Assembly: GCF_964340395.1 (NCBI RefSeq)
Contig: NC_135551.1
Coordinates: forward strand, 26,953,380-27,017,379
From: Glandiceps talaboti
Lineage: Eukaryota > Hemichordata > Enteropneusta > Spengelidae
Length of the DNA: 64,000 nucleotides
Direction: 5' to 3'
In this document: positions 9,149-29,906 of the stretch, one piece after another
How positions within the stretch are numbered: the first letter of the stretch is position 1
Layout of the letters: every line of letters starts with the position of its first letter
Notes under the pieces: model-generated
Database searches by the model: none
Told to the model about the DNA's origin: nothing
What the model saw: the letters and a program-made list of their open reading frames with translations, nothing else
Position numbers and translations under genes: made by a program

Positions 9149-12100
9149 ATGGCAGATAAAGCGAAAATCAAATCGCCTACTGACACTGGGTCGATGTTAT
9201 CCTTGAAAGACGCTCTAGTGAATCATCGTCTTCAAAAATATCAACAAGGATTGGAGTCTTTGGGGGTGGAAAATGTTTATGACCTTCTCGACGTACTCGA
9301 CGATGATTTGCAGACACTGGGTAAGACTGTACTATAATTATCGTCTTTCAGTCGTTCAGTTTAGTCTGAAGGGCACATTCTAAGGACATCGGTTTGGAGT
9401 CTTAAATTCAAAAATCACGTGCATTGAGAGCCCTTTTGGTTAGGGTATGTATCTGTCTGTGGTGGTGGTGAAAACTCCATTGCAATCGCCACGTGGCTGA
9501 CGATGTTTACATTATGAAATTGAAACATCGACGATGCAGTATGGTACTATTTCTCTCTGTTCGTTTAAATTCTGACGTCAGCTCTAAACGCTGTGCGCAT
9601 ATAGAAGTCTATGAAATAGCAGCATCCCTTTGAATGCCCTTTTCAGGCTTTTGGACCATTTCTATGGTCTGATGACCGCAGAGCCCGAGGTCTTGCATCT
9701 ACAGCACACTAATATTATGCAGGACTTGCACTTCGTCGCGTTACACGTGTGGATGTCGATCACTTTACGTGTCATGTCTTTCTTAATTATTACAATGGCA
9801 TGAGTTAGGAAAAGTTTGTGATGGAATCGTGGTTTTTTTTTAGCACGGCTGAACATATCGTAGGCACTGTCTGTACTGTATGTCTGTCTGTCTGTCTGTT
9901 TGTTTGTTTGTGTGTGCGTGTGCATGTGAGCGTCAGAGAACAACTTAAAACATAGACCCTACACGAGATAGCCATGAAATGACCGTTTATAAATTTTGAA
10001 AGTATGCGAATTTGACACAAAAGTTAGGAAATAATTCAAAACTATTCAGGCATAGATATATACAAATAAATTAACCTGAGTAACCACATGTCACTATAGT
10101 GTGGCATATTTGATACCCATAATTGTCGACTGAGGGCGCCATTTACACAATTTTGGAGTTACATCCGCTGCACAGTCTCTTTAATTTGATGAAATAATGC
10201 TAACTTTGTCACTTTCCCTCAGTGTAATGTTTATTTTTGCAACTAATCGGAATACTGCTATAAAGAAAGTTATAGATGGCTTACTGAATAGATATAATAA
10301 TTCCAGCATTTTTGTTTAATTTTGAAATTATACCTGACAGCAGAATGCTTCCTTGGACAAATTCTAGCAGTTAATACTGGTCCAGTTTCATGTAGTTGTT
10401 CTCTATGATCTCTTTCTAGCATGTAATCAAACAGAAAAATTATATTGAAAATCTAGCTAAATCTTTTGGGGAAGGGATGAACAGTGCATGTCAGTAGTCA
10501 TCCATCAAACACTGACAGGCGGTTGTAATTGGCTACTTCGTTCACTTTACTACAAACTTAACCTTCTGTCGTAAAGTAAGTCATTATTGTAAGTCATTGA
10601 TTTAATGTATCATGATGCATTTGTCCTAACCAAGAGTGAAGTCACTTAATTTTGTTTGCTATTTCCCCAGACTCTTTGGGGGTGGTAGCCTTTAAGTCAT
10701 AACCCCAATGAGAAGAGTTGATGTAACCAAAACTACCCAGCATATTTGACGTGATTGTTCTTGTGTAAAAGATGAGGGAGAAGTTTAATCAAAGAAGGAC
10801 AATTTAGCAAGTCAGGGAGGGATAATGAGTTTACAGTGACATTTACATTTAGTCAAACATTAATTTATTTTATGGAACTAGGGCCATTAGATTGCACTAG
10901 ACAGTCTTAGTAACATGGTTATTAAGAAGTTACAGAATCACAGTGCACAATACTGCCATTGTCAATAGTTTCTCATGGCTTAGTTGAAATAGTTAGTCCT
11001 ACCGAAGAAGACAGGTTTTCCATGGGTACTCGGACTGCAAATAATATTCATAGTAACCACCTCTCAAATTTTAACAGCTGCTAGATCCTTGGGCTAACCT
11101 GCTTACTTTAAAAGTGACCAAAGGTTGCCGCTGAGGGCACTATAGCCTGCCCAGACAGCGGCACTCATCACTTTTCAGCTTTTTATTCTTTATCCAAAAC
11201 TGCAGATCCAAGGTCTTACCCTACAAGACTACCACCTCTAGCACAGAGACTTGGCTATCTGATGTGTCACACTGGCTTGAAAGTATATACAAATGACATT
11301 TTTGAGCCAGATACCCAAGTTTCTGGGCTGCCATATCTCCAGATATAAGAATTGAAATATGAAGGATGTCAGTGTCATTGAAATACGATGTGTGTTAGTG
11401 GCATTTGTCTGATAACATATGACACAGAGATAGATATTCATGTTTGACTTATTTGGCTATTTAGGAATGACGAAAGTGGAAAGAAATCGTTATCATCGCA
11501 TGTGTAAACAAGTCAAAGAAGTAGGCAGTTTGTCAGCGATGGAGACTTGTGAAGGAAGCATAGAGTTGTCAACGATGGAGATGAGCACAGCAAATGGATC
11601 ATCAACCATGATGGAGACCAATGAAGGAACTGAGACACCATCAATTATGGAGACTGATGAAGGAAGTGGAGAGGTGCCATCATTGGAGACAAGTGCAGGA
11701 AATGGATCATCAACATCGATGGAGACGAGCACAGGAATTCAGATACCATCACTGATGGAGACTTGTGAAGCATTGTCATCTGCAGGCAGTGAGGAGTATC
11801 ATCTCAAATACTACATTTTAGATTGTGCAGTGCCAAAGCAGTTAGATGGTCTAAACCCTAATCAGCACACCATTCATGACTTGATAGAAATCATATTGAG
11901 AAATGAAGCCATCAGAGATGGTGTCACTGCCCAGATATACTCTATTGAAGGGACACCAATCACATGTGATGTCTTTCTTAACAGATGTAAGTACAATACA
12001 TGTTAATTAGGTATTTTGCATATTACTTTTGTCTGTGTATGTCATTTTATGCAATATTATTCTTTGAATTCAACGTAACATTTACAATTCGCAAGGCTTA

Positions 12101-29906: not shown

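What the first reader, a model, noticed from the sequence alone, without database searches (positions are those of the whole stretch)
9149..29906. One polypeptide carrying ubiquitin-like, E2 and E3 modules plus vWA and SAM
Twenty-five exons join without any phase conflict into 1,176 residues with SAM, at least one UBL fold, vWA with full MIDAS, a UBC domain with catalytic Cys, and a U-box. Known E2/E3 hybrids (BIRC6, UBE2O) have no U-box and no vWA. A U-box less than 25 residues after an E2 fold suggests an intramolecular E2-E3 pair, with the vWA or SAM choosing substrate or assembling oligomers. I know of no characterised animal protein with this order; it may exist as uncharacterised predictions.
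Basis: partly seen in the sequence, partly recalled or inferred. Interest (0 to 1): 0.88.

Follow-up and report, generated by a model that had tools for sequence, protein, structure and literature searches.

The report
Built-in E2–E3 ubiquitin enzyme, uncharacterised
An acorn-worm gene appears to make one large protein that holds both a ubiquitin-carrying enzyme and its partner ligase, and relatives in fishes, sponges and a distant protist show that this is an old protein family for which we found no study of its function.

Summary
Twenty-five exons (9149–29906, +) splice into 1,176 residues with the catalytic Cys at 1013. The window is from the hemichordate Glandiceps talaboti.

NCBI splits the locus into two "uncharacterized" genes. 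Exons 5–7, missing from both, are conserved in Saccoglossus and in a second Glandiceps copy, and continuous homologues occur in fishes, sponges and Trimastix; this favours one gene. It is a widespread, unstudied family, not a one-off.

In 143 of 143 aligned relatives the E2 keeps His, Asn, Cys and the UbcH5 D117 equivalent. Ordinary E2 surfaces have changed: F62 is lost, and L104 is D/E/N/S in 139 of 143 but hydrophobic in the hemichordates. Best reading: a self-contained E2/U-box ubiquitin ligase with a specialised E2. Activity, substrate, single transcript and E2–U-box pairing are untested.

The parts
9149..29906 (+). whole coding gene, 25 exons, 1,176 aa (Glandiceps talaboti; NCBI splits it into LOC144433316 and LOC144433317)
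   Evidence: identity with P0001 and P0146
9191..11517 (+). SAM domain, residues about 15-75 (exon 1 and start of exon 2)
   Evidence: SAM_TNK E 0.002, below cut-off; 18 of 45 relatives match at E<=0.1; five helices in Oscarella model residues 9-67
11538..11770 (+). in-frame 108-nt (36-aa) tandem repeat in the linker between SAM and UBL1, about 2.2 copies
11785..12388 (+). UBL1, residues about 165-250 (exons 2-3)
   Evidence: hhalign of family profiles UBL1 vs UBL2: 94.5 %, E 8.2e-8 over 64 columns; strand and helix order
12434..14090 (+). UBL2, residues about 266-345 (exons 3-5)
   Evidence: Pfam ubiquitin E 0.15 here, 1.3e-10 in P0005
14148..16162 (+). helical domain, residues about 365-475 (exons 5-8); spans the gap between the two NCBI gene models
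   Evidence: helices; exons 5-7 conserved in Saccoglossus P0003 and in the C7 copy
15933..15969 (+). alternative first coding exon of NCBI LOC144433317 ([13 protein letters not shown]), joined to exon 8
   Evidence: hhalign internal vs C-terminal U-box profile 98.1 %, E 7.7e-14, 69 columns; reversed profile and seven other-domain controls at 1.5 % or less
20736..25713 (+). vWA domain, residues about 681-845 (exons 13-19); MIDAS D688 S690 S692 T763 D795
27167..28861 (+). UBC (E2) domain, residues about 930-1076 (exons 21-24)
27841..27843 (+). codon of catalytic Cys1013 (His1003, Cys1004, Asn1005, Cys1013, His1014)
   Evidence: 143 of 143 relatives keep His1003, Asn1005, Cys1013 and His1014; 142 keep Cys1004
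29667..29870 (+). C-terminal U-box, residues 1098-1165 (exon 25)
   Evidence: U-box E 3.9e-14; 44 of 45 relatives

Best explanation
It is a self-contained ubiquitin ligase of the E2/E3-hybrid type. Inferred cycle: an E1 charges Cys1013 of the UBC domain with ubiquitin. The C-terminal U-box, tethered by about 24 residues after the last E2 helix, binds the E2 face in the same chain or in a partner chain of a SAM-mediated oligomer, and promotes transfer to a substrate lysine. Substrate or partner selection would be by the metal-dependent vWA. The tandem UBLs and internal U-box would be non-catalytic regulators or scaffold. Shown: the exons, the domains, the conserved catalytic and MIDAS residues, and single-chain architecture in predicted proteins of relatives. 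Inferred: activity, E2-U-box pairing, ubiquitin as the modifier, oligomerisation, and the roles of SAM, UBLs, vWA and internal U-box.
For: Gene model with intact frame. UBC and U-box above Pfam cut-offs, and matched in 45 and 44 of 45 relatives. Catalytic Cys and the His75, Asn77 and D117 equivalents in 143 of 143. HCN is counted within the canonical motif ('histidine proline/cysteine asparagine', PMC10971424, passage). UbcH5 R5, important for binding the U-box-type effector NleG (PMC2891834, passages), is kept in 141 of 143, and K63 in 95 of 143 but Ala here. The hemichordate E2s are hydrophobic at L104, which packs on ubiquitin I44 (PMC4864278, passage): V here, I in the C7 copy, and M, L, L in Saccoglossus. 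The best Foldseek match of both models is an engineered E2-then-RING fusion, 8v0d. Relatives on one chain: by column coverage of 60 % or more, SAM 111, UBL1 124, UBL2 128, internal U-box 142, vWA 143, UBC 143 and U-box 137 of 143 (the last three were partly selected for by the search).
Against: No biochemical data. UbcH5 F62 is not kept (Val here; V 77, Q 24 of 143), nor is the S-P-A loop (T-S-D here), and D87 is N or S in 136 of 143, so docking may not be canonical; F62A had no effect with NleG, however. The 8v0d match has rmsd 14.4 and 18.2 A over both domains, so the relative placement differs or is undefined. NCBI has two genes here. A fish model, P0147 (635 aa), has the N-terminal half only and no UBC or U-box, and P0006 and P0143 have UBC without a Pfam-called U-box. 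SAM and ubiquitin profiles are below cut-off in this protein.
Confidence: 0.6

Rival explanations
1. Two genes or two products: an upstream SAM-UBL protein and a separate vWA-UBC-U-box protein started from its own promoter near 15.9 kb, as NCBI models them.
For: NCBI has LOC144433316 (residues 59-315) and LOC144433317 (residues 448-1176 with its own first exon 15933-15969). Saccoglossus P0004 (677 aa) lacks the N-terminal half, and a Salminus model P0147 (635 aa) lacks the C-terminal half.
Against: LOC144433316 ends by reading into intron 4 and begins at an internal Met, so it looks like a fragment. Exons 5-7, absent from both models, are conserved at protein level in Saccoglossus P0003 (22/66, 15/43, 11/21 identical). 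In the C7 copy, pieces matching exons 3, 4, 5, 6, 7, 8 and 9 lie in this order, across the NCBI break. Many relatives are continuous, a full-length Salminus model (P0034, 1,074 aa) among them. An extra short isoform is not excluded.
Confidence: 0.2
2. The E2 is specialised for another modifier or an internal UBL: in most lineages the donor-ubiquitin surface has changed, so the chain handles a different Ubl, or its own UBL1/UBL2 occupies the donor or backside site and controls activity.
For: L104 equivalent is D 103, E 19, N 12, S 5 of 143; K101 is E 77; S108 is Gly in 143 of 143. L104 and K101 contact ubiquitin in the closed state (PMC4864278, PMC4944129, passages). Two UBLs lie in the same chain.
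Against: Hemichordate members, this one included, are hydrophobic at L104. No partner modifier is known. UBL binding was not modelled. The nearest solved E2s by sequence are ubiquitin E2s.
Confidence: 0.2
3. A scaffold with a catalytically dead E2 (E2-variant-like), the U-box recruiting ordinary E2s.
For: Altered E3- and donor-binding surfaces. The U-box is intact by profile.
Against: Cys, Asn, His and the D117 equivalent are kept in 143 of 143, which a dead enzyme would hardly need.
Confidence: 0.1

Closest known systems
BIRC6 and UBE2O, human E2/E3 hybrid enzymes (PMC13061254, passages)
   Same: E2 UBC domain and E3 function in one polypeptide
   Different: The E3 part here is a U-box; SAM, tandem UBL and vWA are present. 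That BIRC6 and UBE2O lack vWA and U-box is recalled. No direct sequence comparison with them was made.
Mb_UBOXa (Monosiga; relatives in Naegleria, Trimastix, Spironucleus; Marin 2010, PMC3087547, abstract and passages)
   Same: vWA and U-box in one protein; a Trimastix relative is in our set (P0075); very likely the same ancient family
   Different: The passages that I read report no UBC, UBL or SAM in it and state that the gene is not present in animals. If it is the same family, our hits contradict that statement. The Monosiga sequence itself was not compared.
Engineered E2-RING fusions (8v0d UbcH5B-MIB1 RING3; RNF168-UbcH5c 8uq8)
   Same: E2 and E3 on one chain; 8v0d has the same E2-then-E3 order
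   Different: Artificial, RING not U-box, none of the other domains; interdomain geometry not the same in the models (rmsd 14.4 and 18.2 A)
PPIL2 (two U-boxes in one protein, PMC13061254, passage)
   Same: Two U-box folds in one chain
   Different: The rest of PPIL2 is a cyclophilin (recalled); here the first U-box is internal and degenerate
WDSUB1 (WD40-SAM-U-box, PMC3087547, passage)
   Same: SAM and U-box
   Different: WD40 repeats; no UBC or vWA is described in the passage
TFIIH p44/SSL1 vWA
   Different: 13-17 percent identity; fold similarity only

Membership tests
Ubiquitin E2 (UBC) | UBC fold with catalytic Cys | tested here: met
   UQ_con E 7.5e-33; Cys1013 in 143 of 143 relatives; model of P0001 at rmsd 1.0-1.6 A to UBE2D/UBE2E rows
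Ubiquitin E2 (UBC) | H-P/C-N motif | tested here: met
   HCN: H 143, C 142, N 143 of 143; the P/C alternative is stated in PMC10971424
Ubiquitin E2 (UBC) | E1-dependent thioester activity | not testable with these tools
   needs biochemistry
U-box E3 | U-box domain over curated cut-off | tested here: met
   53 bits against cut-off 21.4
U-box E3 | binds an E2 and stimulates transfer | not testable with these tools
   needs biochemistry
E2/E3 hybrid enzymes (BIRC6, UBE2O type) | E2 and E3 domains in one polypeptide | tested here: met
   UBC and U-box also lie together in the NCBI protein P0001 and in 44 of 45 relatives
E2/E3 hybrid enzymes (BIRC6, UBE2O type) | orthology with BIRC6 or UBE2O | not tested
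   no direct comparison made; the nearest solved E2 is UBE2D1
vWA with MIDAS | DxSxS, T and D metal-binding residues | tested here: met
   D688, S690, S692 in 143 of 143; T763 142 of 143; D795 142 of 143 with one gap
SAM domain | profile match over cut-off | tested here: inconclusive
   18.6 bits against cut-off 25 in this protein; best relative E 7e-9; five helices in P0005
Ubiquitin-like domain | profile match over cut-off | tested here: inconclusive
   12.3 bits against 25.4 here; 41.4 bits in P0005; two related UBLs by hhalign
Mb_UBOXa of Marin 2010 | vWA and U-box in one chain | tested here: met
Mb_UBOXa of Marin 2010 | sequence kinship with the Monosiga and Naegleria proteins | tested here: inconclusive
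   a Trimastix relative was found, a genus named in the paper; neither Monosiga nor Naegleria is named in the listed hits
WDSUB1 | WD40 repeats with SAM and U-box | tested here: not met
   no WD40 family among the nine matches at E<=1

The most novel reading that the evidence does not exclude
An ancient eukaryotic 'private' ubiquitylation machine. One chain holds E2, its own U-box, a second non-catalytic U-box and two built-in UBLs. The E2's general E3 and donor-ubiquitin surfaces have been rewired, so it works only with its own U-box or UBLs and is closed to ordinary E3s. It is not among the seven human U-box genes named in the survey read, so a whole self-contained branch of the ubiquitin system has gone unstudied.
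Probability: 0.3. Interest if true: 0.8.

Novelty: new variant of a known kind. Interest (0 to 1): 0.6.

Why it matters
E2–E3 pairing is normally weak and promiscuous, so structural biologists fuse the two artificially. A natural E2–U-box chain would show how evolution fixes the pair, and it comes as an intact assayable unit. Relatives are found in sponges, hemichordates, lampreys, fishes and the protist Trimastix, yet the named hits listed are 'uncharacterized', 'hypothetical' or bear only automatic names. A 2010 survey held a gene with the same vWA + U-box signature to be missing from animals. The changed E2 surfaces, with hemichordates keeping a hydrophobic donor site, give a ready comparative test of what the donor interface does.

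Tried and rejected
Rejected: assembly of unrelated exons by chance. The C-terminal 729 residues equal part of an NCBI protein and relatives match over nearly the whole length.

Rejected: tandem paralogue in the window. tblastn at E ≤ 1e-3 finds only the gene's own exons. One other copy was found in the genome, on contig C7. Eight weaker hits on contigs C17, C1 (two), C6, C22, C8, C5 and C9 fall in or at the edge of the E2 domain (query 477–632) and were taken to be ordinary E2 genes; they were not followed up. The genome search used the NCBI protein, so it covers residues from about 448 on only, and scores only the best candidates.

Rejected for want of evidence: viral or prokaryotic origin. 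One scan of viral contigs and one of prokaryotic genomes gave 59 and 52 stretches with a pattern, none confirmed as a relative by tblastn. Both scans rest on two short peptide patterns each, so distant relatives could be missed.

I first took HCN, instead of HPN, for a striking oddity; dropped after PMC10971424 listed P/C as the canonical alternative. No Rfam family reaches its gathering score in the window. NCBIfam gives only matches far below cut-off. The single-sequence PDB search with the internal U-box piece gave only weak hits (MMS21 E 1.2; zinc-finger proteins above it) and is not used; the profile comparison is.

Not done: tree of the family; transcript evidence; placement of U-box on E2 (no interdomain error map was available). 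Absence from tetrapods or other phyla cannot be claimed: only 120 of 333 hits were listed, and one search scored 7,996 candidates and listed 59. Rows dropped before the counts: of 147 proteins, P0001 (the window's own), P0146, P0147 and P0145 (partial or weak), leaving 143. These were found mostly by searches with the vWA-UBC-U-box region, so presence of those three domains is partly built in. The set is fish-heavy and not thinned. Besides the hemichordates, one unnamed sequence (P0144) is also Leu at the L104 position.

Full report
**Observation.** The region codes for one open gene on the + strand. Reading the frames and joining exons gave 25 exons from 9149 to 29906. All 24 introns are GT–AG, and the phases join into 1,176 residues with one final stop. 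One search had a frame error at exon 8/9, and solved it with an alternative donor (1,175 aa). Residues after 478 are therefore one lower than the numbers used here.

**Organism and existing annotation.** The 742-aa NCBI protein LOC144433317 of the acorn worm Glandiceps talaboti contains residues 448–1176 unchanged, and 258-aa LOC144433316 contains residues 59–315. NCBI thus cuts this locus into two genes. LOC144433316 starts at an internal methionine in exon 2 and ends with one residue and a stop read from intron 4. LOC144433317 uses a private first exon at 15933–15969. Exons 1, 5, 6 and 7 are in neither model.

**One gene or two.** Three results argue for one. (a) Exons 5–7 align to Saccoglossus P0003 with 22/66, 15/43 and 11/21 identical residues. 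(b) A second Glandiceps copy on contig C7 has pieces matching exons 3, 4, 5, 6, 7, 8 and 9, parts of the vWA, the UBC and the U-box, in this order on one strand over about 20 kb. No piece matching SAM, residues 525–701 or residues 873–910 reached E 1e-2 there. (c) Many relatives are continuous. Against it stand NCBI's two models and two half-length models in other species (P0004, P0147). A shorter isoform from the inner first exon is not excluded. No transcript data were available.

**Domains.** Pfam on the whole protein gives UQ_con E 7.5e-33, U-box 3.9e-14, VWA_2 2e-8 and VWA 8.5e-6, all over cut-off; SAM_TNK (0.002) and ubiquitin (0.15) fall below cut-off. In 45 diverse relatives at E ≤ 0.1 the counts are UQ_con 45, VWA_2 45, U-box 44, VWA 43, ubiquitin 26 and SAM_TNK 18. 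AlphaFold models of the NCBI protein (742 aa, mean pLDDT 87.8, pTM 0.79) and of the Oscarella relative (1,120 aa, 86.1, pTM 0.71) are confident within domains. Read together they give SAM, UBL1, UBL2, helical domain, internal U-box, β region, vWA, UBC and U-box.

Family profiles of the stretch around residues 486–552 and of the C-terminal U-box match by hhalign (98.1 %, E 7.7e-14, 69 columns). The reversed profile and seven other domains of the same protein give 1.5 % or less. The chain therefore has an internal, degenerate second U-box. UBL1 and UBL2 match each other (94.5 %, E 8.2e-8); four comparisons of UBL1 with other domains stay below 1 %.

**Conservation of function-bearing residues.** Counts are over 143 relatives: 147 retrieved, minus the window's own protein and three partial or weak ones. 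Search bias: they were found mostly with the vWA–UBC–U-box region, and the set is fish-heavy. In the E2, His1003, Asn1005, Cys1013, His1014 and the D117 equivalent are kept in 143 each; C1004 in 142. HCN is within the canonical 'proline/cysteine' motif as worded in PMC10971424 (passages). MIDAS: D688, S690, S692 143 each; T763 142; D795 142 with one gap. So both the E2 and the metal site are under strong constraint.

**E2 surfaces.** Against UBE2D1 (ungapped alignment), R5 is kept in 141 of 143 and K63 in 95 (Ala here). F62 is V 77, Q 24 (Val here), and the S-P-A loop is mostly S/N–A/S–H/D (T-S-D here). With the U-box-type effector NleG, E2 R5A and K63A weakened binding and activity while F62A did not (PMC2891834, passages), so loss of F62 does not rule out U-box docking. 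The L104 equivalent, which packs on ubiquitin I44 in the closed state (PMC4864278, passage; also PMC4944129), is D 103, E 19, N 12, S 5, L 3, M 1. The hemichordates seen are hydrophobic here: V in this protein, I in the C7 copy, and M, L, L in Saccoglossus; the third Leu is the unnamed P0144. The donor site is therefore close to ordinary in hemichordates and changed in nearly all others of the set.

**Distribution.** Among listed and named hits are hemichordates, the sponges Oscarella and Oopsacas, lampreys, Amia and many teleosts, and the protist Trimastix. The named ones are uncharacterised, hypothetical or carry only automatic names. Only 120 of 333 hits were listed, so absence elsewhere is not claimed. 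The seven main human U-box genes named in PMC3087547 (abstract) do not include such a protein, and PMC13061254 (passages) names BIRC6 and UBE2O as the E2/E3 hybrids. No relative was confirmed in viral or prokaryotic collections. In the Glandiceps assembly this locus and the C7 locus are the only ones with matches outside the E2 region (query residues 448–1176 only).

**Prior art.** Marín 2010 (PMC3087547) described Mb_UBOXa, a vWA + U-box protein of Monosiga with relatives in Naegleria, Trimastix and Spironucleus, as an ancient gene 'not present in animals'. It is very likely the same family, but I did not compare the Monosiga sequence. If it is, the statement about animals does not hold. A survey of ubiquitin-system architectures (PMC4327156, passages) does not name this one in the passages seen. 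Other searches that bear on the architecture listed no study of it; they cover open-access papers only, and one search listed 20 of 64.

**Mechanism.** Most likely a self-contained E2/U-box ligase, with SAM for assembly, vWA for a metal-dependent partner, and UBLs and inner U-box as regulators. Domains and residues are shown; activity, pairing and partners are inferred. The chief rivals are a two-product locus and an E2 tuned to another modifier or an internal UBL.

**Verdict.** Real, well conserved and apparently unstudied; an architectural variant of the E2/E3-hybrid kind rather than a new kind.

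Noticed in passing
G000 contig C7 about 8984770-9004546, - strand (loci L009-L011): A second Glandiceps gene of the same family, pieces from exon 3 to the U-box in the same order; SAM not found in the 40 kb fetched.
   Followed up: partly
P0056, P0058, P0065, P0091, P0097 (Xiphias, Trachinotus, Centropristis, Pleuronectes, Paralichthys): A RING (residues 15-57 in all five; B-box-like stretch after it in P0056) precedes the SAM region, giving RING, UBC and U-box in one chain. 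The five were picked for their RING label, so five of five is by construction; SAM reaches E 0.01 only in P0058 and P0091. A hint of an immune or oligomerising role.
   Followed up: partly
window 11538-11770: In-frame 108-nt tandem repeat (36 aa, 2.2 copies, 76 % matches) in the linker after the SAM domain; may vary in length between individuals.
   Followed up: no
window 24582-24659 and 24750-24827: A 78-nt sequence duplicated at 90 % identity in intron 17, just before exon 18. A nearby stretch at about 24693 resembles the start of exon 18 by eye, possibly a decayed exon copy.
   Followed up: partly
window 1169-1756 (+), 33370-39530 (+), 45000-46421 (-), 52086-52607 (-), 59300-62443 (-): The gene sits among repeated pieces that look like SLC22-type transporter exons (name recalled). 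Of six pieces tested, Pfam Sugar_tr is over cut-off only for 1169-1756 and weak for 38690-38962; the other four gave no match.
   Followed up: partly
window 53964-55382 (+): Retrotransposon-type reverse transcriptase ORF (RVT_1 E 1e-33).
   Followed up: no
P0143 (Amphiprion ocellaris), P0006 (EukProt): Relatives with UBC but without a Pfam-called U-box. P0143 ends with only what looks like the tail of the U-box; a source labels it ube2a, probably a misnomer.
   Followed up: no
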